Below are positions 16,875 to 58,553 of a stretch of DNA of 64,000 nucleotides, piece after piece. The translations under genes were made by a program, and so were the position numbers. Positions within the stretch are counted from its first letter, which is position 1, and every line of letters begins with the position of its first letter. The notes beneath the pieces were generated by a model that saw nothing but the letters and a program-made list of their open reading frames with translations, was not told the origin of the DNA and did not search any database. The stretch comes from Tomocerus qinae (taxonomy: Eukaryota; Arthropoda; Collembola; Entomobryomorpha; Tomoceridae), in contig CM034546.1 in assembly GCA_020055645.1 (NCBI GenBank), forward strand, positions 139,769,875 to 139,833,874, read 5' to 3'.

Positions 16875-19800
16875 TTACAATTCGGCTATTGTGTCGGTGC
16901 TGGGCTTCCGATCATCTGCTCCGTTCACAGACAAATTCAGGTTAACAATGGAGCGGATGGTGGAGTTAAACTCCCGTTGCACTTCGATCCTCTCCTGGTC
17001 CCCATCCACCTACCCAAATTACAACCCAAGTCAAGCGCACTACAGAGTATCACCATAGGCATCAAAAAAATTTTGAAAACCAGGTTGCTCTGGGAATTGG
17101 ACATTGCATTGTCCATCTAACGCTCCACTCCAGCGCAGCCATTAGAGGTCTTATCCAAAGAAGGGGGCGTGGTTGGGCGGAGCTAAAACTGGTAATTGGG
17201 AAGTGGGCGGAGCTTGTTGGTCTGTAAAGTTTTTTGATGCCTGGTATAGCAAAGAGAATCTAGTAATAGAAAATGTATTCAATAGACTGACAATGAAGAG
17301 TCGTTTCCAGTCGTCAATGACTTTGAGGATAGGCAAAGTAATCGTTCGGTAAATCTCTAGTCTCCGCTTCACTGCATGAGGACTAACGTCATCCGCTCGT
17401 CTCTGCCAAAAAAACAACAAGCCCAACATTCCCAACCCAATTAGGGAATACAAATACTATTATCAAAAGTATAAAATAAAGACATGCCTCCTTAAGTCTG
17501 GACCCAAGGGAACGACCCAGTTCCACTTCTGAACAGTCAAGGAGAACACACACAGGACGTACCTGCAATAATTTATGGATTAGATTAATTTAGGTGTCAT
17601 ACATCAACATAACGAGTATACTAGACACATTTCAGGGATGAGTCATTTTGCAGTGGCATACAAGTAAGATCATGATTAGGATCCGATGGGAATAGGCAAT
17701 AAGGCAATGCTTCACTTATTTTTATTTGGCTATCCACCCGGATCATTGGAATGGGAGGATAGATAACTACTAGGTATAAATGGGTAGCAAATAACCAATC
17801 ATTATTAACTGTCGGCGATAATTTATGGGATTGGCTAATAATTATGACTGACTATCGTGTCCGTCCGTCTCTACCTACTCCCAATGTGGACATGCCGTAA
17901 CAGACTTACGACCCATTCGGCGTGTCCGGCGAAGTGGCCCCATGGGAACTGCCCCCCCCGGACACCTGGCCCCATGGCAAGTGGCCCTATGGATAGCTGG
18001 CACCAAGTGGGAGGAGCTTCCGTGTATAGTCCGAGCTTATCGATGAGCTCAACCTCTTAGCATGGGACTTAGCATGGGGATTTAACATGGGACTTTGCAT
18101 GGGGACTTAGCATGGGAGTGAAAATATAAGAGATCACGCAAGCTGGGAACCGATTGTAACAGACGAAGTTGACATTTTCAGCATCTACTCTACTTTACAA
18201 TATTAGAAAACTAATTTCTCGAATTTTTTTTAAAATCCACAGTTTTTGAGTTATGGCGGTTTTTACCCAAAACCTTTACGTGGGAGTAATTTCGAAACTA
18301 CTGGACCGATTTTGACGAAACCAGTGCCAAAATGATCGCATGGTTGTTCTCTACATGGGGTAATCAACACATTTTTCAAAAATCCAAAATTTTGAAAAAT
18401 TTCGAAAAAACTTCGAAAAATGATTTTGATTTGAATTTTATTCTGCATTGAGTTTATGAAGACTTGTAATGCAGTTACAAATGTTTCTAAGTCGTCTTCA
18501 ACTCATTTAAACATTTTTCGAAGTTTTTTCGAAATTTTTCAAAATGTTGGATTTTTGAAAAATGTTTTGATTACCCCATGTAGAGAACAGCCATGCGATC
18601 ATTTTAGCACTGGTTTCGTCAAAATCGGTTCAGTAGTTTCGAAATTACTCCCACGTAAAGGTTTTGGGAAAAAACCGCCATAACTCAAAAACTGCGGATT
18701 TTAAAAAAAATTCGAGAAATTCGTTTTCTAATATTGTAAAGTAGAGTAGATGCTGAAATTGTCAACTTCGTCTGTTACAATCGGTTCCCAGCCTGCGTGA
18801 TCTCTTATATTTTCACTCATGGGGATTTAGCATGGGACTTAGCATGGGGATTTAACATGGGACTTAGCATGGGGATTTAGCATGGGACTTAGCATGGGGA
18901 TTTAACATGGGACTTAGCATGGGACTTAGCATGGGGATTTAACATGGGACTTAGCATGGGGATTTAGCATGGGACTGAGCATGGGGATTTAACATGGGAC
19001 TTAGCATGGGGATTTAACATAGGACTGATCATGGGGATTTAACATGGGACTTAGCATGGGGATTTAGCATGGGACTTAGCATGGGGATGTTACATGGGAC
19101 TTAGCATGGGACTTAGCATGGGGATTTAACATGGGACTTAGCATGGGGATTTAACATGGGAGACGGTCGTAGTATGAATGCGATTCATATTCATATTCAT
19201 ATTCATATTCGTATTTATTTGAGTGCCAGAAAGTTCAAATCTTACAAGAAGAAATGTTTTAACAACAGTCAGCACTGAAGGCAAGCCAGTATCGTCACCT
19301 TACTCCCACAATCAAAGCCGATTCGTACCCAGATAAAGTTCGATAGTCAATTTATACAGACAAACATAAGTTTAATGTGTTGGAACACATAAATATTCTA
19401 AAAATTAAAGTTAATAACAACTAGTAGATAGAAGCGTACTTAAAATTATATTACGATGGCCCTTCTGAGGGCCAGTACATTGATTGGGAAAGGGATTGAT
19501 GGAAGTTAACGAGCTCATCGATAAGCTCGGACTATACACGGAAGCTCCTCCCACTTGGTGCCAGCTATCCTTAGGGCCACTTGCCATGGGGCCAGTTTCC
19601 ATGGGGCCACCTCGCCTAACACCCCCATTCGGCATTTTCTCATTCTGTCTCTCAGTAAATTAAGGACGAGGGGTAATCTGCCGCAATCCCTTAACCACTA
19701 ACGTAGATATGCCACCTAACCTAATAAAAACTAAACCAAAATAAACCTAGCTATGTAAATGTACACTCCCAGTGCCAAATCCAGCCAGTCTCAAAGAGAA

Positions 19801-22800
19801 ACATAAATTTTAATCAGAATGAAGGCAAACCTCGACTTCTTCCCTCTGCTGGGGAAGCCCTACCATGTCGATACTTAATAAATTATTGAATGCTTACTTG
19901 GAATCTCGTTTCAAAAGTGTGGATTTGTTCTTGTGTTCTTGGAAATCCGTCCACAATGACGTCTCCTTGCAGATGATTTGCAAGTACTTTGAATATCAAC
20001 TCATTGGGTACCAATTCTCCGTTGAAGATGCATTTCCTTATCGAGGCAACTTCCTCCCCACTGAAATAGTCACGACGACCCTCCACCGCCTTACGTAATT
20101 CGTTCCCTTTAAAATAATTCCAAGTTTAGATGCATTCAGTCTTATTCCACTAAATAAAATTGGCACTGCGTCAGGCATTTCTAGATTTCGGCAATTCGGC
20201 GACCAGGTCGCCCAGGAACTCTGACCTAGGACCTAGATCCACCTACTTTCTACAACTCCTTACCTTGGATCTCGAAATCTGAGGGAAAAGTTGCAAATAA
20301 TATTTCGACATCTATAATATAGTCAAGAGAAAAGGTTTTAGGTTTCGGATAACAATCTTTACGTAAACAGTCTGAGTAAAGGTATTCTCATCTTTGTGGT
20401 AAAGTTGCTATATCGCGAGAGTTGCTATGGTCTAATTGCGGTTTCAAAATAAATCCATATTTGCATGTCAGTTATCGGCGTCCTAGCAAGTTTGCGACGT
20501 TGTAACAGTTTTTGATAAGTTACCCAAGGTTACGAAGATACTTATCGGTATGAATGTTCGGTTGTTCAAACTCCAAGGTATGGATTAGTGTGGAAAGGGT
20601 GTTCGGCAATGTTTGAGTTTTACCAGTGACTGTTGTCATGGAAATTACAGTTGCCTATTATCTTGACAATTGTCTCCATTCTCCAAGTGCCTTAAGCAAT
20701 GGGATCGCCAAGTTGCGGTAGCTCTCAGTTTGCGCTAACTTTGTGACAGATTTCTGCCATGTTGTAGCAAAATCAGGGAATAAGAATCGTATTTTGTAGC
20801 AGCGCTATGGAAATTCCCTATTCCTTAAACAACGATAGCAAAGTTAAATATACCCTACGACAATGATGAGAATATCGACAATAGTAACTCCTGTGGTAAC
20901 TCAATATTTGCTTGCGATTTCCTCAATTGTTAAAGGAATAAGAATATCGGCCCAGGATATTTGGGTCATTAATCTCGAAATTTCCGACAAAAAGTTAAAA
21001 GTTTCCGAAAAATGTTTTGACAGTTCGAAATTCTGCATGGTCTAAACTTAAAAATATTTTGTAGTAGACGGATTCTAATTTTGTAGGACCTGTCACCTTG
21101 GAAAAATTCGGGAAGTCTTACCAATACTAATTTGCCGAAAAGTTCGTATTCCTGCGTTTTCAATTAGTTTCTGTTTATTAGACCCAGGACCACCTGAAAT
21201 GCACAAACTTGATTACAATCTACACATTTACTACTTATTTATAATGAGTAGTTTAACATACCGATGACCCAGATGACTCTGTTAACATCATTGTACATAC
21301 TGTTGGATAAAGGGTGGGGTTGAATCGACGGTGGTGGGGCCAACACCATGGACATTGGCACCACTGGTTCCGTCTTCGATGCTCCTTTGTTCGCTGTTTT
21401 CGTCTCCGACACAATCGTGTCTACTGTTTTAATAAAGTCCGCTACCACAGGAAATCATTCATAAAGATTAGCATGTCAAAGCTGGTGCAACTGATTCAAT
21501 AATATAATTAAGTTGGTACAACACAAATATTTATATTTTCAAAATGTTATAAAGTTATAACAGATCTACAAATTGAAAGGGAGACTCAGTCTTCTTTCAC
21601 AATCGCTGAAATGCAGACTCGCAGTATTTGTATTTCCAAAAATAAGCATATTATTTTTTGTTTGACTATTCTAAAATCTGATCGCAGATGGCTCAACAAA
21701 TTAAAATCAGCTAGTGCTGTCGCATGGAGGTCGAAAATTTTCCCAGCTTCTGACGGAAAACTGCAATGGATGAGTTGGCTATTCACGCTGCGCCCGTTAC
21801 TGTGATCACCAAATAACTTTGGACAATAAGATTAAAGAATAATAAAAGCGATAAGAAAATATAATAGGCGAGTTCGCGCTTCAGTGAGCACGAACAAAGG
21901 TGCTCAGTGCTCACTGAAGCACGAACTCCTGTATTGTTCGTGCTCACTGATGTGCGAACCCGCATATTATATTTTCTTATTGGTTTTATTATTCTTCAAT
22001 CTTATTGTCCAAGGTTATTTGGCGATCATAATAAACGAGAAACTGCGACAATTGACACAGCAGCCGACCGCGACTTTCGTTCAACCGCCTTGTGGTTTAC
22101 GCACACTGCACACGGTGGCATACGAAAGTCGGCTGCTGTGTCTATTTTTTTTATCTTCGAAGTGTTTCGTTTAACGGGCGCAGCGTGAACAACCAATTCA
22201 TCCATTGCATAAAAATTGCTTGGACTGCGCAGCGAGTCTGCTAGAGTCATAAATACGAGTTCCCCCTATTGAACACATGTAAATGTGTCAACATTCTACA
22301 ACCTCACTCAAAAGTGACAAAATATTTAAGAATAGTACCGTATACATCAGTTGGCTGCCTCTCGCCGTCCACCTAATCAAAGTCAAAACTTTGTCAATCT
22401 GTTCATGCAATAATTGGGAAACTATTCTGTTCTACAATTATCCTTTACCATAATCTATGCAATATTAAAAATCTATATGAATGTACAAAATGACAAAAAG
22501 GAAATAATTGCGGAATATTTTTTCGAAGATTAATATTATCCATATTTCCTTTCCCCTACGATTGCTACATTAAACGTTTTTACATTTTGGATTCAAATTT
22601 CAACCGATTCATTCATTAAAAATTTTCCATTGTTTTTTTTAATCATAAAAGGAAGCAGAAATGTTTTGAACGCAGTTAAATATAAATAGACATCAAATGG
22701 AATTTTTTCAATGAATTTGACGCAATCAGTGGAGTACGTATATATTACCAAAACCAAAAACCAAACTACTACTAACCAAAAATTGACTACTAATATTGGT

Positions 22801-25800
22801 CGTTTTCTTGTATTCGTAATTTTTTAGCCTTTGTTTTGTACGTCATTTAAATGAAAACTGTGTCTCTTGGGACTCCCAATCAAAATACCAATCTATATTT
22901 CTCTGGCAACATTAAAAAGCCCCGCAGACAGAAAAGAATTTTTAGGCAGGGGCACCGAGTTACAAGCACGTATCCAGAGAGGGGGCCGGGGGCCCCGCCC
23001 CCCAAAAGAATTTTCAGAAAACTACGATTTTTTTGACAAAAAAAGTCAAAAATCCAAAACATTTTGGCGCTTCGCGCAAATATATCTTTATTTTACCAAT
23101 ATATTTTGGTAGGCCCCCCTAGGTCAAATTCCTGGATACGTGCTTGCCGAGTTAGACATGCGAAACTTAGTGCGTTTTTGGACAAAAATCTATAAAAAAT
23201 GTCTTGGTTTTGGAGGGGTATCCTTAGATTAGGTTAGATTATGATAAATTAAATTAGGTTTGTAGGATGGGGCTAGTCTGACCGATATTTCTCTCTATCC
23301 ATAGTAAAAACTATTACTACATTACTATGAGAAGTTGTGACAATAAGATTGGAGAATACTAAAAACAGAAAAGAAAACATAATAGACAAAGGTGACTTCA
23401 AGGTTGAATCAGCAGCTCACGCAAGAGCGAATTCGTCCTACGTCTTATCGATGATGATTTCGATGTTTTCTTCTCCAATCTTATTTTCACAACTTCCGTG
23501 AATATAGTAATACAATTGGGTATAGACGAGAGTATATAAGCTGGTAACATGGAAGGCTTTAACAAATATTAATGCAGTAAATGTAAGATAAATCAGGCTT
23601 GAAGTGTGAAATGTTAAATGGCTTACGACAACAAGTTTCTTGAGCTGGTCGAAATATCTGCAATTTAAAACAAACTTTTAAGTAGTTTGAATAGATTGAA
23701 TTAATAATTTTGGGTTTGTTAGGAGTTAGGAATCTTACTCGGCTACAGCAAGGACATTTTTGGCATAGTTTTTCAGCTCCATTCTGGCCAATTGTAAGAC
23801 GGTGTCTCCCAACTGTGACCCGAATTCAATCTGCTTCTCAAGAATCTTGACGTGCCAATTTAGTAGAATTACTCGATCCACTCTGTGCAACTAAATCAGA
23901 TTCTATAGTAATTAAAAGTCTACCAGAAAGAGAAAGAAATACTTTAGGGAGATAATTAATTCAACCTTCTTTCCGTATTCCACGACATCCCGCATGCTGC
24001 GTGGGTAGCCCGAGATCAAATAGCAAGAGGCAGTCACTGCCATTTTCATCTCCATCATCAACACCTCCACCAGATTCTTGGCCGGCATAGAGTTAAAATC
24101 CTGCAGTCCTGCATCCACATTATTACAAATGTCAAGCCTTACGCAGCCCCTTAAGGCTTTTCTACGCATGCACTTGTTGACTACTTATCCAGGTGTCGCA
24201 TTTAAAAATCAAAAGTGCCGATGGAGAGATTGAGCTTCCTCAAGAAGTTCGTTTATTTCTCACATAGGCGCATGGGGTCAAATGAGTTTGGAGTCTTTCC
24301 AAACCTTTCCAACTGCTCCGGAGCTGTTGGAGCTGTTGGAGCTCCGGAGCTGTTGGGAGTTCAGGCGTCGTCACCCCTCCACCGCCACTTCACCTCTTAG
24401 TATATGTTACCTTTACCAGACCACTACAACGCATTAGTTGTTATATGTTGATTGTTGATAATAATTATATTTCACCTTTTGGCGGGCCGTTCTCGACGCT
24501 CTAACCTCGCAAGCGGCCGTGCGTGGAAAAGGCTCACATAATTGCAATTTTGTGGCATTTTACCTGAGCGCGGGATGGCAGGCTAAAGCCTGCCAGCAAA
24601 TCCGCGCACAGATAGCATGCCACAAAATTATTCAATTATTGATATTGATACAAGGCTCCCTCCTCCACTCCATCGTCTTGTTACACATTACACGCATTTT
24701 GTTGATGTTGTTACTCTTCATGTAATATTATTATACTAGTTTTCGTTTTCGGTGACCAGCCGAAAAATGGCTGGCTAAAATGGCCGGTCGGTTGAAATTC
24801 TTTGTTAACCAGTGGCTAAATTGTCTTAAATGGCTGGCTTAAGTGGCCCGCCGGTTGAAATTGAGAAAATCATACTTTACTAGAAGAAATTTACAAAACC
24901 ATGATATTTGGCCATTGTGGCAACTAGCCATTTTAGCCGGCTGGCTAGTCAAAATCACTTTTAGCCGGCTAAAATGGAACACTGGTACACCCACATAAAT
25001 ATATATACAGATAAATGTATTGCTTTATCAAGTCAACGATTATAATATGGAGATTCATGGGCCAAATCTGAGCTGAATGTATATTTTATAAAACTGATCC
25101 GGTTTACTGTACAGTGGTTATAGATTCTGTCCGAAAGTTTACTTTTATTCGAAAACTAACAAAATTTGAATGAATCTAAAATTTTTCATAAAGAATTTCA
25201 ACCAACCGGCTAGCCAATTTAGCCAGCCAATTTATCCGATCAGCCGGCTAGTCACTGAGCACTGGGTGGCGAACCCATGAACAGTGTTCCATTTTAGCCT
25301 GCTAAAAATGATTTTGACCAGCCAGCCGGCTAAAGTGACTGAAATGGCTAGTGGCCAAAATGGCCAAAAATCATGGATTTTTAAATTTCCCGCCAAATCA
25401 AGGATGATTTTCTCAGTTCACATAGCCCTATTTGACTGTTTTTGGTCATTTCAGCCATTTCGACCATTTTAGCCTCTGCCTAACCAAGAATTTCAACAAG
25501 CCGGCTGGCCATTTTAGCCAGCCATTTTAACCAACCAGACGGCTGGTCATCAAACACTGCCTAGGAATACCAAGAATGCAAAATGCAGCAAGCAAAGGTA
25601 TTATTAGCTGTTGTTGTTGATATGCAATGCATATCAGAAGTTCAGATAAGAGTTAAGATTTTGCACCATTGGTTAGACCCGCTCAATCACCATAAAAACC
25701 GTGAATGTAGCAAGTAGCAATGTAGCTCTAGCTGGTGATGTAGAGGTGCAATGCAATGTACATGGAAGTGCCTAGCTTAGGTAGCCTACCACCTACACAC

Positions 25801-28800
25801 CAACGCTCGCACTTCTAGGGCCATCTCATTTCATAACATTCATGATTTTTATTTAGTCTAGTTATGGGGTCATCATTTGACCTTTTGTGACTGTCCACAG
25901 GCTGAACTACAACAGCTGCAAAGTCAAATAAGAGCTCGTTGGAAATGTCGGATGATAACTTGGTTCGTGAAGTTACGTTATTCTTTATATCTGTACCCTG
26001 ATTCCCCATAAGAGGGGATATGTGGTTAATGCAATTAAAATTGCGACCTTACGGACCTTTACGAACCAAGTTATTTCTTTAGCTTTTCAACGAGGTATTT
26101 TTCGACTCTGTAGCTGTTGTAGAACGACCGGATCTTGGAATCTAAGTTGACAAGTTTTCCATGCAAGCTAAAAGATGCACCTTAACCCAAAATCCTTTAT
26201 CTTGTCAATTAACGCAAATCTGTGCACCTCTCATAATTTGGAACATTGCCAACAACTTATTAAACCGACACCGACATTAAAAATTCTGAGGGATGACACG
26301 GATTTCCGTGAATTGACAAAACATAAATTCATTAGTCACGCAACTCTCAGAATTTTCAACATAGCTGATATGTGATGTAATATGGTATTGGGAGTAGCAA
26401 AACTTCTGAAAAGGACACTTGAATTTATAGTCACAGTCACAGTAGCAAATGTCCAAAGCGTTCCACTGGAAACTGAGGTTTTAGCTATACGTTGCCTGCT
26501 GAGCAATGTTTTTGGATGGGTGTCTAGTATGCGAGTTGTAGCTATAGCTTTTATACCAATGAGCTTGATTACGCAGACTAAAGCCCATACTCCCAACTCT
26601 GACTTCAGACCACTCCAAAACTTATGAGTGACTTAAGACCACCTTTCCTCAAAATCGGTACCACGATATCCTCATCTCAAGGCAATCTTATAACAATATC
26701 TTTTGTCCATCTTATCGGTACCATGATCATCATCTTATGGTTTTTCGGATGGGAATGCGGCAGGAGGGAGTGTCAATAGGAGGGTAATTGGATTTTTGAT
26801 GAAAATTCAAGTATCTGTAGTAACCCCACCGATTTTGTCTAAAATTTTGCTTTGACGAGATCGTAAGATGAACTTGAGATGAACTTTCCTTGATTTTATG
26901 AAAGACGGGACTCAAGACAGTCTTAAGTATAAGACGATCTTGTCACAGTAATCGTGGTACCGATTTTCAATAAGATCTCAACTGGTTTAAGATGATCTTA
27001 CGTAAGATTATCTTAAGATGGTTTAGACTGTTTAAGTCTAGCATCTAAACAACTCAGTTCCTCGCCTAAATCCTATAGCGCTGCAATAACATTACACATT
27101 TATGGGGAAAACTCTAGCACCCTATTCGGGTCGGTAATTCGTTAAATTACTCGGGACTCTGTGTTGGGAAACCAGTTATAGGTAACACTATATCTGAAAC
27201 ACTTATCTTTATAGCTTATCATTATGGATTGTTGAAAATTGGAAGAGATTACACAAATTTAAATATATGGAGATAATGAGGAGTTGTGAATTTAATTGAG
27301 TGCAAGGTGTCGATATCTCTTTGTACATGCAACGAATATATTTGTATTTGTTTAATTACCGTTTCCCACGACATGCTGTTGAATCAAATCGGCTGAAACA
27401 AGGAATAAGTTATAATAATCGGCCATCTTTGCAAATCATAAATCTTTGTAGACAATTAAAATGAAACTAACTCATGTTGACGTGTGCTAGGCCCGGCCTC
27501 TCCTGCACTGCTCGGTCACCTAAAACAAAATGACTTGGTTATTATCGGAAAACTTTTGCTTATAACACCTATATTAGTTGGCACTAATCTTTAAATCACT
27601 TACAATGTGTTATTTTCCCAGATCCTGTATTTGCGAAAGACATTAAGATAAATAAAAGTCATTAACCGCCAAGGCATTAAAAAACAAAAGGTGCCTTTCT
27701 GGGAGTCTTTTTGCCCAGCAAATTAGCAACAGGTAATTTGGTTATTTTAAATAAAATAAATTGCAATATGTATGTCATTGTCATTCTATTATATAATCGC
27801 AGACTGAGAAAAATTTACCCACCTATATATATATGTCTGGTAGGGTAAAGGAGGATATGCAATAAAAAACTGGAGTAGAGGTCTTGTAGCCCTTAAAATT
27901 TCACCCAGACAACATGTATATGTTCCTATACCTAAAATGAGACCCTGAGGCTGTAGGATTTTTAAAGAAAATATAATAGTATATGGCCGGAGTAGGGAAA
28001 ATTTTTTTTTCAAAAATCGATTTGGAGGGGTTGGCCGGGGTTTTTAACACTTTTAAGCTTATCCCCAGGTAGAGGGAAAGTTCCAGCAACTTTTATGGAA
28101 AAATTGGTACCATAAGGTACCGTAAGGTTCTAGTGGTACCGTAAGGAAAGGTGTTGGAAAGACGCAAAACATTGACACACCCAATTTGGGGCAACCGATT
28201 TCAAAATGTAACACCTCAAAAAATAGGATACAAAATTCTGCACTGGGCATTGTCTCCTGATTTTTTTTATCTTTTCATAGAACAGAGAACGAGACGAGTT
28301 TGTCAAACTCCGATGTATTTCTCCCACTCCAAAAACTAGTAAATTTTGAAAAATTTTTATTCCCTACGGGCGGTGTGTTATCAAAGTTTTGCGTATCGTC
28401 GAGTCAGCCTTAAGAATTTATAATTTTGTATCCACGATTCTCTACTGTTCTTAGAATAACTAATCTTAAATCCCAGCTTAAATGTAACGCTCAGTTAAGG
28501 TATCTGTAAACTTGCTAATGTCAACTATATTTTTTTAAACCCTCAATTTGTTTTTAATATAACGTTCCTAGCAGCAACCACTAGTGGATCTAAATTGTTC
28601 AATTCAGATCCATGATGAAAACCAGTGAAATTCCATTTTCAATATGCCCGTAATAGCCAAATTCACATTCTCTCACCATACCATAACTACACCAGCTTTG
28701 CCGTGGAACAGGTGGGATTTATTAGGTCACGAATCTAATTGGGTTCAGCGAAAGCCATGTATCTTTAAAGCATAATTATTTTTAAATTAACTTAAAGTAG

Positions 28801-29195
28801 AATTTTGTCTTATTTTTATTTTCAGTATTATGACATGATGAAAATGTTTTCAGCAATTGCCAAATTGTCATGATGTTATTTGTTGTTTGTGTGTAAAATT
28901 ATTTAATAAAAATTATTTTTATAAAAATTGGTAAGACTTAAAAAAGAAGCTAGGATTGGTACATTAAGACTTAACATTGTTAGCCTAATTAATACATTTT
29001 TATTATTGATAGACGTACCGGGTCCTCCGAGTATGAAAATGACTGGTACTCTGGGTTCGCTGAATCGTACAGCGGAAGAAGACGAGGAGAGTTTCTGGGC
29101 GGCGGTTGCCAGTCGGTTGGGCATGTCACTCCAGTCACTCGTCTCTGTAGATGTAAAGCGACCATCGGATTCCAGTTCACTCATCAGCTGCGTCT
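16875..29195 (-). CDS. Two-domain adenylate kinase (AK5-like), 14 exons, N-terminus missing
   Basis: Exons: 29195-29019, 27624-27604, 27519-27472, 27392-27360, 24108-23966, 23890-23739, 23657-23627, 22372-22339, 21441-21262, 21193-21122, 20106-19898, 17562-17488, 17402-17292, 17009-16875. All junction phases agree, giving 472 codons plus TAA. Adenylate kinases interconvert ATP+AMP and 2 ADP. Domain 1 has PVIFILGGPG plus microexon SGKITH plus CDRAVQ (Walker A intact), HVNMTDLIQQ (the usual DLLR Arg is Gln), LISGYPRS, then RVDRVILLNW and LARMELKNY; its LID lacks the usual Gly-Arg-x-Asp-Asp. VDGERQPTDVYADF closes it and leads into a linker. Domain 2 has VIWVIGGPGSNKQKL (degraded Walker A), ISIGNELRKAV, VIVDGFPRTQEQ, VCVLLDCSE, RRADD, KRRLEIY, and ends VDGDQERIEVQREF. 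One or more 5' exons (DPY30-like in vertebrate AK5) were not found. The 17562-17488 exon appears to use a GC donor. The adenylate kinase family is secure; the AK5 assignment is inferred from the tandem layout. Confidence 0.9.
18116..18818. mobile_element. Nested 0.7-kb foldback element
   Basis: Arms of about 320 bp start GAGTGAAAATATAAGAGATC and end GATCTCTTATATTTTCACTC. The arms contain TGGACCGATTTTGACGAAAC-type sequence and differ by scattered substitutions. It is inserted in CATGGGACTTAGCATGGGG repeats that continue on both sides. Confidence 0.85.
18823..19172. repeat. CATGGGACTTAGCATGGGGATTTAA minisatellite
   Basis: About 25-base units with internal half-unit variation. The same units occur left of the nested foldback at 18058-18115, so the foldback was inserted into this array. 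Confidence 0.9.
19175..19455 (-). mobile_element. 3' end of a LINE, same family as 62521-62800
   Basis: The reverse complement matches 62521-62800 nearly base for base over about 180 bases, from ACACATTAAACTTATGTTTG to GGCACTCAAATAAATACGAA. It ends in a tandem GAATAT/AATACG tail, the usual microsatellite-like LINE 3' terminus. It is 5' truncated. Confidence 0.85.
21762..22210. mobile_element. Nested foldbacks in an adenylate kinase-like gene intron
   Basis: Three inverted pairs: the outer pair TTCACGCTGCGCCCGTTA (about 21783) with its mirror (about 22177); a middle pair around CAATAAGATTAAAGAATAAT (21826) mirrored near 22008; and TGACACAGCAGCCGAC (about 22055) mirrored at about 22125-22142. 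The AAACGAACTCGTGCTCACTG-like spacer is itself palindromic. The family motif CAATAAGATTGGAGAA also occurs at 23341. Confidence 0.7.
22963..23146. mobile_element. 184-bp MITE with 8-bp target duplication (CCGAGTTA)
   Basis: Termini CAAGCACGTATCCAG and CTGGATACGTGCTTG are inverted. CCGAGTTA flanks both ends (22955-22962 and 23147-23154). The middle has GGGGGCC runs and a GCGCTTCGCGC hairpin. It lies in the intron between adenylate kinase-like exons 22372 and 23627. Confidence 0.88.
23331..23496. repeat. Small foldback, GAAGTTGTGACAATAAGATT family
   Basis: GAAGTTGTGACAATAAGATT at 23331 is mirrored by AATCTTATTTTCACAACTTC ending at 23496. It shares the CAATAAGATTGGAGAA motif with the foldback at 21.8-22.0 kb. 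Confidence 0.7.
24744..25559. mobile_element. Cluster of decayed AGCCGGCTA-rich MITEs, hAT-like
   Basis: The clearest copy is 25282-25559, starting CAGTGTTCCATTTTAGCC and ending GGTCATCAAACACTG, with an imperfect 8-bp duplication (CCCATGAA against CCTAGGAA). A reverse copy ends AAAATGGAACACTG at 24984, and a third end (GTCACTGAGCACTG) is at about 25265. All carry repeated AGCCGGCTA and GGCTGGC motifs. Another fragment is near 32820. It is intronic in the adenylate kinase-like gene. Confidence 0.65.
26625..26985. repeat. Decayed inverted repeat
   Basis: TCAAAATCGGTACCACGAT near 26650 is mirrored by ATCGTGGTACCGATTTTCA near 26951. AAGATGATCTTACGTAAGAT palindromes follow at about 26979. Intronic. 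Confidence 0.5.
27604..27624 (-). other. 21-base microexon of the adenylate kinase-like gene
   Basis: It is flanked by an AAATACAG acceptor and a GTAAGTG donor, phase 1 at both ends. It encodes S-G-K-I-T-H plus split Gly and Cys codons, restoring GGPGSGKIT. Without it the Walker A lysine of domain 1 would be absent. Confidence 0.88.
27785..27846 (-). repeat. Dispersed repeat fragment (copy 2)
   Basis: Reverse-orientation copy of 14904-14955 (CAGACTGAGAAAAATTTACC, then CCACCTATATATATATGTCT). Confidence 0.65.
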
Positions 29196-33926: not shown

Positions 33927-34022
33927 TTTGCAAATGTAATATTAAAAGGCACGCTCAGACTTTGGTCGTTTTGTTTTTGATAGCATAATGCATGTAATTG
34001 CATTTATTTTATTGTTTAAATC

Positions 34023-34541
34023 AATAAAAATTTTGTAATTGACAAAAAATTGCTCAAAAATTTTGTAATTGACAAAAAATTGCTCAAAAATTTTGTAATT
34101 GACAAAAAATTGCTCAAAAATTTTGTAATTGACAAAAAATTGCTCAAAAATTTTGTATTGACAAAAAATTGCTCAAAAATTTTGTAATTGACAAAAAATT
34201 GCTCAAAAATTTTGTAATTGACAAAAAATTGCTCAAAAATTTTGTAATTGACAAAAAATTGCTCAAAAATTTTGTAATTGACAAAAAATTGCTCAAAAAT
34301 TTTGTAATTGACAAAAAATTGCTCAAAAATTTTGTAATTGACAAAAAATTGCTCAAAAATTTTGTAATTGACAAAAAATTGCTCAAAAATTTTGTAATTG
34401 ACAAAAAATTGCTCAAAAATTTTGTAATTGACAAAAAATTGCTCAAAAATTTTTTAATTGACAAAAAATTGCTCAAAAATTTTTTAATTGACAAAAAATT
34501 GCTCAAAAATTTTGTAATTGACAAAAAATTGCTCAAAAATT
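34023..34541. repeat. 30-bp tandem repeat, about 17 copies
   Basis: Unit AAAAATTTTGTAATTGACAA plus AAAATTGCTC, nearly perfect. One unit is 1 base short (about 34155) and two have TTTTTTAATTG. The period is divisible by three, so both strands show apparent 125-130 codon ORFs (repeating LLKNFVIDKK and FLSNFLSITK). These are not taken as genes. Confidence 0.97.
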
Positions 34542-34549
34542 TTTAAAAC

Positions 34550-55029: not shown

Positions 55030-57134
55030 AGAACTAGAAGGATATGAAGCCATTGAAATCGAGCAATCGTCACCAACTTTGCCAACTTCCGATTTGATTG
55101 ATGCCTCGGATTACAATGATGCAGCTTCCAGTGAATCTCCAGAAAATGGATCTCCAGAAAGTGAATCTCCAGAAAGTGAATCTCCAGAAAATGAAGAAGA
55201 TAGAGTAGAATATATCACCAGAAAGAGAAAGCAGAGAAAACAGGCACCAAAAGTTGGCAAAGCCAAAACGGATATTTGGAATTTTTTTGAAGTTAATGAA
55301 GTAAACAATAAGAAGAACTCCACTTGTTTGGTGCGTAATAAAAGAAGGTAATCAGTTCAAAGGCAGATCGTTTGCGTCTACATAAGTCAAAATGTGACGA
55401 ACAAGAAACATACAAAAGATTAAGAGGTGAGCGAAGACGATCTTTGCAAGATGTGTCTGTAGAAGAGAACAATTCGAAATCGGAAACATTATTTAATGGT
55501 CCTCCACCGAAAATTCCAAAATTAAGACAACAAAAGGTGGAGGCTTCCTTTGGTACTTTCTTATCACCGAAAGTAAAAGAAGACATGGATAACGCCCTTG
55601 CCCGATTTTTTTTCCTGTAACATGCCATTTAACATAGTCGAAAACAATGAATTTAAACTCTTTGCAAGTAAGCTGAAGCCTGGATATGAACCCCCCTCAC
55701 ACGAAGTTATTGGCAACAAGTTGCTAAAATCGATTTACAATGAGACGCTAACGACACTCAAAAAGGAGTTAGCCGGAAAAGAAGTAACTATTGATCAGGA
55801 CGGCTGGACTGCATTTCACAATGATCAACTAATTGTCCACACCATTCACACAGAAGAAAATACATACTTTTACGACGCAATGAGTTCAGATACAAACAAA
55901 AAAACGGCTGAATTCTGCCTTGGACTGCTAGAAACCGTTATTAAAAACGTAGAAGAAGAGGTTGGTGCAATTGTTATTGGTTAGGTAACTGACAACTGCT
56001 CCACAATGAGATTAATGCAACGAAAATTAAAAGAAAACGACCGGATTTATATGTATATGGATGCAACGCCCATCTTATGAATCTGGTTGGAAAAGGATTG
56101 ACTCCAGAAATATTAAAAAATGAAGTAGTTAGAGTGCAAAACTACTTTTGCAATAATGACTTCCCTTCTGCCGCCATAAAAAGATTAAAGGATTACGGCC
56201 AATTATCCCGGGGGATACACGATGGAATAGTCAAATTGACACATTCGAATCTTTCTTGGCAAATCAGCCTAAGTATTTACAAATAAGTCGAATGGAAGAA
56301 TGTCAAATGACCTCAGAAATATTAACCATCATAAAAAGCAACCAACTTTATGATGAACTTCTATCGGTTACCCAACAACTTACTCCAATAGCTGAGAAAC
56401 TGGATTCGGTAATCTAAAATAATGTCTTGTCTTTCATGTTTTATCTAAATTTAATGGCTTTCAAAACATAACGTTGTAAATTAATACGTTTTTGAATTAA
56501 TAAATCTCGTTTTCCTAAACTAGGTGCAACACGAAAGATCTACTTTAGCAGATGCTGTAGACTGCTGGCTGAAATTCAAAACCTCTTTAGGAGCAAAATC
56601 TGAATCAGAAGTTTTTAAGAAGAATATAGGACTTGGAATAACGGATTTTGCTATTGTTGCATGTGTTTCATCCTAAGTATAAGGGTAAGAATTAAATAAT
56701 TGTGGATGTCCGTTACGATATTAAGTTAAAGTTAATCCATACGTTTTAAAGGTAAAAAGTTGACAAAGAAAATGTTAGAGCGTGGACGAAGATGGCTTTT
56801 CAATAAACAAGATTATTTTGTTGTGGTAGCCTCTGGATTAAGTTTGAAAGATGCAGAAATGTTTTCGGAGTCTTTTCTTATTAAAGATGAAATTTGCAAT
56901 TTAATGCCCCCTTTAAAATGGTGTCTTGCTGTGTCTAAAGGAAATGCAAGTATTCCGAAAGAGCTCTTGGATATTTTGGATAGTTTGTTTCGACTTCCTT
57001 CAAGTTCTGCTGGACTAGAAAGGAAACTACTGAGCAAGATTTTATCTAAGACCCGTAACAGACTTGGTATTGATAAGGCAAAAATGCTGTGTACTATTTA
57101 CCTCAATTTAAACAACAGAAATGCAAAACAATAA
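55030..57134 (+). pseudogene. hAT transposase pseudogene (BED finger, DUF659, hAT dimerisation domain)
   Basis: The collinear pieces in three frames are: an acidic N-terminus with SPENGSPESESPESESPEN; a BED-like finger broken by a frameshift at about 55348 (KNSTCLVRNK then LRLHKSKCDEQ, first CxxC pair spoiled); a basic linker; LARFFF then a frameshift in a T-run at about 55605 to FFSCNMPFNIVENNEFKLF; a DUF659-like core (TIDQDGWTAFHNDQLIVHTI, KKTAEFCLGLLETVI, GAIVIG then a TAG, then VTDNCSTMRLMQRKL); a frameshift at about 56060 to GCNAHLMNLVGKG; and from 56760 MLERGRRWLFNKQDY to the dimerisation motif LFRLPSSSAGLERKLLSK. The D of VTDN and the Cys-His of GCNAH fit hAT. At least three frameshifts and a stop make it inactive. 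ZBED-like host genes share this layout, but the damage argues for a dead transposon. Confidence 0.85.
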
Positions 57135-57428
57135 TCTTGTCAACTGTAACAAACCAAATTAACACAAACGTATTAATTCAGTAGTAATATTACAATCTTT
57201 GTACTATTAAAATTATAAATATTGCATGAATCCCAAAGAATTGATTTTCAAATAGTTATTAATATAATAATTGCTTAGGTATATATATTACTTTTATATT
57301 CATCCGTGCACACCCATGCAAATAATCATCTAATGATTACATGAAATGAGGATAAAATATGCTCTTCTTTCCTTAAACGCACAGATTTAATGCTCTCTGT
57401 GTGTTAAAGTTTCATTTCACTTAATTTT

Positions 57429-57528
57429 TATATTTCCCATTTTCCCACCCACTAGGCCTTTTTGTTTCCCACTTTTCCGACTGGGAAATGGGAAATGTCC
57501 GACTTCTTTCATTTCCCACTCGAAATGG
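57429..57528. repeat. Dispersed TTTCCCATTTTCCCACCCA repeat fragment
   Basis: About 100 bases rich in TTCCCATTT/GGGAAATGGGAAATG, similar to about 53810-53885. It abuts the 5' truncated LINE. Confidence 0.5.
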
Positions 57529-58553
57529 GGAGGTACTATAATTTATGCTAAAAGCAATATTACATGAAAACAGATAGAATATGATGTTAATTCACATATT
57601 GATTTGGAAATTCGCATATTGCAAGTTAAGTCTAAGAAACCGCTCCATATTGTGGTTGTTTATAATCCACCTCATATTCCTGGTAATGTCTTTATTGACA
57701 CTTTAGAAAAACTATCAGATCAGGCATTCCAAAGCAATGTTATATTTCTTGGTGATCTTAACATTAATCTTCTGAATGATGATTTTCAAACGCGTAATTT
57801 AATTAACACAACGAAATCCTTTAACTTTACCCAATTGGTCAATCAACCAACTAGAGAAACTTATCAGACTAGTACTTTGATCATGTTTGTACAAATATTG
57901 ATGTAACTAAAACAAATCTTGATGTATTTTCATTGACAAATTCAGATCATAAGTGCGTTATGGTTACTCTACACAAATCTGATGTTAAATTCAACTCAGA
58001 AAAAATGCAGTATCGCCATTATAATAAGGTTAACTGGAATGACTTAAATCTTGAAGTTAGTAAGCTGAATTGGAGCACGCTATCAGACTTAGAAGTAAAC
58101 GAGCAATTAGATTTTTTTACAAAGGAAATTCAAAAGCTGGTAAGCCAATACGAGTAGGTTTAAGAGACATGATTTATGAGAAACAAAAGGTAAAAAACAA
58201 ACTTACATAACCCTTTAGTCCAGAATTACAAATTAAGTTCAAAAAATTGAAATATCGTGTTTCTAAAGAATTAGCACAATCAAAGAAAGATTATTTTATA
58301 AGAAGAGTTGACTGATAACAAAGATTCATGTAGTATATGGTATAAATTGAATCTACTTTTTTGTAATAATCGTAAACAAACAAATTGTATTGAATCTCTC
58401 AATAGTAATGATGGTGTTATTGAGAGCAACGCTTCTACATGTGAAAGTCTAGCTGATACTTTCATGGTAAACAGTAAAAGTGATTCTCAGGTAGATGAAT
58501 TTTATAAAATTGTAAAGTCCAACCATGAGGTTAAACCTCACAACTCGTTTTGA
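57529..58553 (+). pseudogene. LINE endonuclease region, broken
   Basis: Opens GGTIIYAKSNIT then TGA, then HIVVVYNPPHIPGN, NVIFLGDLNINLLNDD (apurinic-like endonuclease GDLN), TQLVNQPTRETYQTSTLI, frameshift, LTNSDHKCVMVTL (SDHK active-site motif), NWNDLNLEVSKLNW, then SKKDYF and a segment to VKPHNSF. Typical of CR1/jockey-group LINE ORF2. Several stops and frameshifts; 5' truncated. Confidence 0.85.

What the first reader, a model, noticed from the sequence alone, without database searches (positions are those of the whole stretch)
27604..27624. 21-base microexon encodes the Walker A lysine of an adenylate kinase
Joining the flanking exons directly gives GGPG-DRAVQ with no P-loop. A 21-base segment with perfect AG acceptor and GTAAGTG donor, phase 1 on both sides, inserts S-G-K-I-T-H and completes GGPGSGKITHCDRAVQ. 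Skipping it would stay in frame and remove the nucleotide-binding lysine, so alternative inclusion could switch the domain on or off.
Basis: partly seen in the sequence, partly recalled or inferred. Interest (0 to 1): 0.75.

Follow-up and report, generated by a model that had tools for sequence, protein, structure and literature searches.

The report
Tiny exon carrying ATP-binding lysine
In an insect-like adenylate kinase gene, seven residues that include the ATP-gripping lysine sit on a real-looking 21-base exon; it is most likely always included, so it looks like an unusual way of splitting a gene rather than an on/off switch.

Summary
On the minus strand, 27624-27604 is a 21-nt segment with an AG acceptor and a GTAAGTGA donor, phase 1 on both sides, completing GGPG-SGKITHC-DRAVQ. 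None of 5000 dinucleotide shuffles of the stretch contained such a P-loop-completing exon with a GTRAGT donor. My 14-exon model (29184-16875) is open for 463 residues: two adenylate-kinase domains, of the insect AK5-like type (name recalled). With the microexon, domain 1 passes Pfam ADK (36.7 bits, cut-off 26.8); without it, it fails (20.8). An inverted copy about 440 kb away keeps the microexon and its splice dinucleotides unchanged. The skip is in frame and removes seven residues, not six. The proposed switch is unsupported: no transcripts are held, the splice signals are not weak for this gene, and about 81% of human micro-exons up to 51 nt are constitutive, though fewer of the smallest (PMC4317164). 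Domain 1 also lacks several catalytic positions, while domain 2 keeps those but has GSNK in its P-loop. Best reading: a constitutive microexon made by two phase-1 introns in one P-loop.

The parts
29019..29184 (-). Exon 1 from the first in-frame ATG taken as start; ends phase 1 at ...VIFILGGP-G. Upstream exons not excluded.
   Evidence: donor GTACGT
27604..27624 (-). Exon 2, the 21-nt microexon: completes G, then SGKITH and the first base of the Cys codon; Walker A lysine
   Evidence: acceptor ATACAG, donor GTAAGTGA; identical in the second genomic copy
27472..27519 (-). Exon 3 (48 nt): CDRAVQERPGLAHVNM
27360..27392 (-). Exon 4 (33 nt): TDLIQQHVVGN
23966..24108 (-). Exon 5 (143 nt): GLQDF...SGYPRSMRDVVEYGKK
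23739..23890 (-). Exon 6 (152 nt): most of the rest of domain 1 (degenerate LID)
23627..23657 (-). Exon 7 (31 nt): YFDQLKKLVV
22339..22372 (-). Exon 8 (34 nt): VDGERQPTDVY
21262..21441 (-). Exon 9 (180 nt): end of domain 1, linker and start of domain 2 (NRVIWVI)
21122..21193 (-). Exon 10 (72 nt): domain 2 P-loop GGPGSNK, not a microexon
19898..20106 (-). Exon 11 (209 nt): NELRKAV...VDGFPRT of domain 2
17504..17562 (-). Exon 12 (59 nt): VRPVCVLLDCSEVELGR...; its 3' junction is uncertain (weak donor GTCCAG, 3 of 9)
17292..17400 (-). Exon 13 (109 nt): RADDVSPHAVKRRLE... LID of domain 2; its 5' junction is uncertain
16875..17009 (-). Exon 14 (135 nt): C-terminus and stop codon
27520..27603 (-). 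84-nt intron after the microexon; if retained, an in-frame TGA follows at once
   Evidence: length; stop read directly from the sequence
27625..29018 (-). 1394-nt intron before the microexon; 27844-28000 is a dispersed repeat

Best explanation
This is a constitutive, in-frame 21-nt microexon of a two-domain adenylate kinase gene. Two phase-1 introns fall inside codons of one P-loop region (GGP[G|]SGKITH[|C]) and leave a seven-codon exon. The spliceosome most likely recognises it in nearly every transcript, helped by an ordinary acceptor, a full GTAAGT donor and a very short downstream intron. It supplies the phosphate-binding lysine of domain 1. Shown: the sequence, phases, open 14-exon frame, homology gain on inclusion, and an unchanged microexon in a second copy. 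Inferred: that it is transcribed, that it is always included, and that it arose by intron insertion.
For: The only P-loop-completing segment among 55 open candidates; 0 of 5000 shuffles with a GTRAGT donor. Inclusion raises Pfam ADK from 20.8 to 36.7 bits, across the 26.8 cut-off, and the match to solved AK5 (2bwj) from 34.0 to 54.3 bits. The 14-exon frame is open to a stop. In the second copy the 21 bases and the AG/GT are unchanged, and exons 1-11 are open with 9 substitutions, of which 3 change residues, all in the linker. The donor scores 7 of 9, tied best (4 of 13 donors); the pyrimidine fraction of the acceptor (0.60) is within the gene's range of 0.45-0.75. Five of the 14 exons in the model (2, 3, 4, 7, 8) are 48 nt or shorter. 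Base rate: about 81% of micro-exons (up to 51 nt) constitutive in human data; constitutive ones have stronger splice sites and shorter flanking introns (PMC4317164, passages seen).
Against: No transcript was available, so inclusion is not shown, and no other species' gene could be compared. The acceptor has the longest AG-free zone of the gene's 13 (68 nt, next 56), a feature reported for regulated fly microexons (PMC8797185, passages). The upstream intron is long (1394 nt). In human data the number of constitutive micro-exons falls sharply as size falls (PMC4317164), so the 81% is too high for 21 nt. Exon 1 to exon 3 stays in frame, so the frame would tolerate skipping. The unchanged microexon in the second copy is expected at about 1.5% divergence even without selection.
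Confidence: 0.8

Rival explanations
1. Regulated cassette microexon: a splicing factor includes or skips it by tissue, making one isoform with and one without the domain 1 P-loop.
For: Symmetric phase, in-frame skip, small size, 68-nt AG-free zone. Regulated fly microexons are short (median 31 nt) with long AG exclusion zones (PMC8797185, passages).
Against: Fly regulated microexons have weak 3' and 5' splice sites, short surrounding introns and UGC near the 3' site; here the donor is tied best in the gene, the pyrimidine fraction is average, the upstream intron is 1394 nt, and the nearest UGC is about 50 nt upstream, with at least one UGC in the last 50 nt at 10 of 13 acceptors of the gene. 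Alternative micro-exons tend to lie in disordered regions (PMC4317164), not in a P-loop. Neither 'adenylate kinase' nor 'CG9541' occurs in the main text of PMC8797185 (supplements not looked at).
Confidence: 0.13
2. The gene or this copy is not functional, or the segment is never spliced in.
For: Domain 1 lacks several adenylate-kinase residues; a near-identical inverted copy lies about 440 kb away, which could be a redundant copy or an assembly duplicate.
Against: 463-residue open frame over 14 exons. Substitution between copies is 12 of 1392 exon bases against 109 of 7438 aligned non-exon bases in the gene (not tested for significance). All splice AG/GT of exons 1-11 are kept in both copies (exons 12-14 not checked for this).
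Confidence: 0.05
3. A different P-loop exon is used (mutually exclusive exons), and this one is minor.
For: None found.
Against: No other open phase-1 segment of 6-150 nt in 29018-27520 completes a P-loop with any GT donor.
Confidence: 0.02

Closest known systems
Constitutively spliced micro-exons (human set, PMC4317164)
   Same: Short, donor not weak, short downstream intron
   Different: Vertebrate data; upstream intron here is 1394 nt; inclusion not measured here
Conserved plant microexons inside protein domains (PMC8831610)
   Same: Tiny exon encodes an essential motif of a domain, e.g. the 9-nt exon in the AP2 domain; often missed in annotation
   Different: Plants, other domains; the term P-loop does not occur in its main text; adenylate kinase was not searched for there
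eMIC-regulated neuronal microexons of flies (PMC8797185)
   Same: Size class, long AG-free zone, short downstream intron
   Different: No weak splice sites and no close UGC here; long upstream intron; gene not named in the main text
Animal adenylate kinase 5 / adenylate kinase 1
   Same: Domain 1 aligns over its whole length to AK5 (2bwj, 1.6e-13) and to AK1 structures
   Different: Domain 1 lacks several catalytic positions; domain 2 has GSNK; an AK1-like gene of the same genome is split at another place, GSGK[G|]TQC

Membership tests
Microexon | Internal exon of about 30 nt or less with both splice sites | tested here: met
   21 nt, AG and GTAAGT
Microexon | Seen spliced in RNA | not testable with these tools
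   No RNA data held
Adenylate kinase (PF00406) | Domain 1 scores above the curated cut-off | tested here: met
   36.7 vs 26.8 bits with the microexon; 20.8 without
Adenylate kinase (PF00406) | Domain 2 scores above the cut-off | tested here: met
   38.1 bits for the 102 residues given, up to the end of exon 11
Active adenylate kinase, domain 1 | AMP-site and LID arginines and DG[YF]PR kept (roles recalled) | tested here: not met
   Alignment: LLR becomes LIQ, DGYPR becomes SGYPR (its R kept), GRSDD becomes QLGDT (also seen against AK5 and AK1)
Active adenylate kinase, domain 2 | Canonical P-loop GxPGxGK | tested here: not met
   GGPGSNK in both copies
Animal AK5 ortholog | Two AK domains, best solved relative AK5 | tested here: inconclusive
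   Two domains; domain 1 best hit 2bwj AK5, domain 2 best hit uridylate kinase 1uky. No insect proteins were searchable; CG9541 orthology is recalled
NCBIfam TIGR01360 (adenylate kinase, aden_kin_iso1) | Score above curated cut-off | tested here: not met
   116.7 vs 284.1 bits; none of the 21 NCBIfam models listed reached its cut-off
eMIC-regulated microexon | Weak 3' and 5' splice sites | tested here: not met
   Donor 7 of 9, tied best (4 of 13); pyrimidine fraction 0.60, gene range 0.45-0.75; crude scores, not MaxEnt
eMIC-regulated microexon | Long AG exclusion zone | tested here: met
   68 nt, longest of 13 acceptors
eMIC-regulated microexon | UGC close to the 3' splice site | tested here: not met
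   Nearest about 50 nt upstream
eMIC-regulated microexon | Short introns on both sides | tested here: not met
   84 nt downstream but 1394 nt upstream
eMIC-regulated microexon | Inclusion depends on the eMIC domain in neurons | not testable with these tools
   No RNA data

The most novel reading that the evidence does not exclude
The protein holds two complementary half-degenerate kinase domains: domain 1 has the only canonical P-loop but a degraded AMP/LID side, domain 2 has the reverse. Regulated skipping of the 21-nt exon would then remove the protein's sole canonical ATP-binding loop and turn it from an ATP-responsive into an ATP-blind adaptor, without changing the frame.
Probability: 0.07. 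Interest if true: 0.6.

Novelty: new member of a known kind. Interest (0 to 1): 0.3.

Why it matters
A gene finder or aligner that misses the 21-nt exon would report a P-loop-less, apparently dead kinase domain; missed tiny exons are a documented problem in plants (PMC8831610, abstract and passages). It also offers a clean natural test of whether microexons that hold a catalytic core are always constitutive, and draws attention to a two-domain adenylate kinase whose domains seem to have lost complementary parts.

Tried and rejected
Relatives by sequence: genome contigs and viral-contig scans with the exon 5 peptide gave no relative (94 and 15 pattern matches, none confirmed), as expected for an animal gene. 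So conservation in other arthropods could not be tested.

Retrocopies: a spliced 276-nt query found 10 matches, each a single exon of one of the two genic copies, so no processed copy that would record a spliced form was seen (only the best candidates are scored there, so diverged copies could be missed).

Mutually exclusive P-loop exon: none of 6-150 nt in 29018-27520.

Shared intron position with paralogs: not found. An AK1-like gene of this genome is split at GSGK[G|]TQC and domain 2 of this gene at VI[G|]GPGSNK. Five further P-loops seen (UMP-CMP-kinase-like L001 and L008, two AK1-like in L023, one AK3-like in L022/L007; names by resemblance) are not split inside the P-loop. The P-loop belonging to the weak hit at C1:98113000 (L021) was not located.

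Literature: 'microexon + adenylate kinase + P-loop' gave 0 papers. 'microexon + Walker A' gave 15; the 10 listed looked irrelevant from the listing only. A looser search gave 1,853 papers with 2 of 4 terms, and none of the 10 listed holds 'micro-exon'. 'CG9541 + adenylate kinase' gave one paper, listing only. Searches gave nothing on this question in their listings. led to the three papers of which I read passages.

Early slip: the peptide used had a wrong exon 3-4-5 join (NMSAD..., GNDF...); corrected and not relied on for scores.

Full report
Observation. The minus strand from exon 1 (ending 29019) to exon 3 (starting 27519) holds a 21-nt segment at 27624-27604 with AG before and GTAAGTGA after, phase 1 on both sides. 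Spliced in, the frame reads VIFILGGPGSGKITHCDRAVQERPG; skipped, VIFILGGPGDRAVQERPG. Seven residues (SGKITHC) are at stake. In 5000 dinucleotide-preserving shuffles of the whole 1499-nt stretch between exons 1 and 3, none had a segment of 6-150 nt that did the same with a GTRAGT donor, and 1 of 1000 did with any GT. The real stretch has 55 open phase-1 candidates with any GT, and only this one completes a P-loop.

Gene. I extended the model to 14 exons, 29184 to 16875, with an open frame of 463 residues ending in a stop. The join of exons 12 and 13 uses a weak donor and is uncertain; upstream exons are not excluded. Exon lengths are 166, 21, 48, 33, 143, 152, 31, 34, 180, 72, 209, 59, 109 and 135 nt, so short exons are a habit of this gene. 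The protein has two adenylate-kinase domains. Domain 1 matches solved AK5 (2bwj) at 1.6e-13 with the microexon and 2.8e-7 without. Pfam ADK falls from 36.7 to 20.8 bits, across the 26.8 cut-off. From recall, not from a call, this resembles the insect AK5-like gene called CG9541 in Drosophila. The genome has one match to the insect odorant-receptor family 7tm_6 (31.7 bits, cut-off 25.8, one stop inside), which fits an insect but is weak evidence.

Second copy. The genome has an inverted, near-identical copy at C1:139.32-139.38 Mb. Its microexon is identical, as are all splice AG and GT of exons 1-11. Exons 1-11 differ by 9 bases; 3 residues differ, all in the linker. Over the gene, 12 of 1392 exon bases and 109 of 7438 aligned non-exon bases differ. 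With 21 bases and about 1.5% divergence, an unchanged microexon is expected even without selection, so this is weak support.

Intron positions. In this genome four phase-1 positions split adenylate-kinase P-loop regions: the first G of domain 2 (VI[G|]GPGSNK), the fourth G of domain 1 (GGP[G|]SGK), the G after K in an AK1-like gene (GSGK[G|]TQC), and the C of domain 1 (TH[|C]). None is shared among the P-loops I looked at; five others are unsplit there. Independent intron insertion, leaving a microexon where two fall 21 nt apart, is my inference.

Mechanism. Constitutive or regulated? No RNA is held. The donor scores 7 of 9, tied best (4 of 13); the pyrimidine fraction is 0.60 within a gene range of 0.45-0.75; the downstream intron is 84 nt. 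These fit constitutive micro-exons (PMC4317164, passages read: about 81% of micro-exons up to 51 nt constitutive, with stronger sites and shorter introns; but constitutive ones become fewer as size falls). Against this, the AG-free zone of 68 nt is the longest of 13 and the upstream intron is 1394 nt. Regulated fly microexons have weak sites, short introns on both sides and close UGC (PMC8797185, passages read), which are not met here. The scores are simple consensus counts. I put constitutive use at 0.8.

Would skipping switch catalysis? Domain 1 has the canonical P-loop, but the alignment shows LLR to LIQ, DGYPR to SGYPR and GRSDD to QLGDT. Domain 2 keeps the R of LLR (as ELR), DGFPR, RADD and KRRLE but reads GSNK in the P-loop; the residue before RADD depends on the uncertain exon 12-13 join. 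The roles of these residues are recalled. So domain 1 is probably not an ordinary adenylate kinase whether or not the microexon is present; the two domains look complementary in what they have lost. That is the most interesting side of the locus and is untested.

Verdict. A real, well-supported microexon in a functional-looking gene, of a known kind, with an unusual but not unprecedented placement in a domain core (plant microexons encode domain cores, PMC8831610, passages read). The switch idea remains a hypothesis. My literature searches, seen as listings, showed no report of this case in the held open-access library.

Noticed in passing
window 1-45968 and 56000-58000 (the rest not checked), against G000:C1:139320907-139382418: Many blocks of this stretch have a 94-99% identical inverted copy about 440 kb away on the same contig (C1, 140 Mb), within about 1.2 Mb of its end, with insertions and gaps between blocks; either a true inverted duplication or two haplotypes placed on one scaffold.
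   Followed up: partly
16875-29184: The two kinase domains of the gene have complementary losses: domain 1 intact P-loop with degraded AMP/LID residues; domain 2 GSNK P-loop with those residues kept.
   Followed up: partly
27844-28000: A dispersed repeat in the intron before the microexon: 38 of the 40 matches scored (of 309 first-look candidates) lie elsewhere, several as inverted pairs about 0.5-4 kb apart, like terminal repeats of a DNA transposon.
   Followed up: partly
33942-34546: A tandem repeat that is open in several frames (KIFEQFFVNY units), seen in the ORF list; probably not a gene.
   Followed up: no
L001 (G000:C4:31873469-31873939): An UMP-CMP-kinase-like gene matched in one open frame over nearly the whole Pfam domain (1-148 of 151, no stop), while a similar gene (L005/L008) is split by introns; possibly an intact retrocopy.
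   Followed up: no
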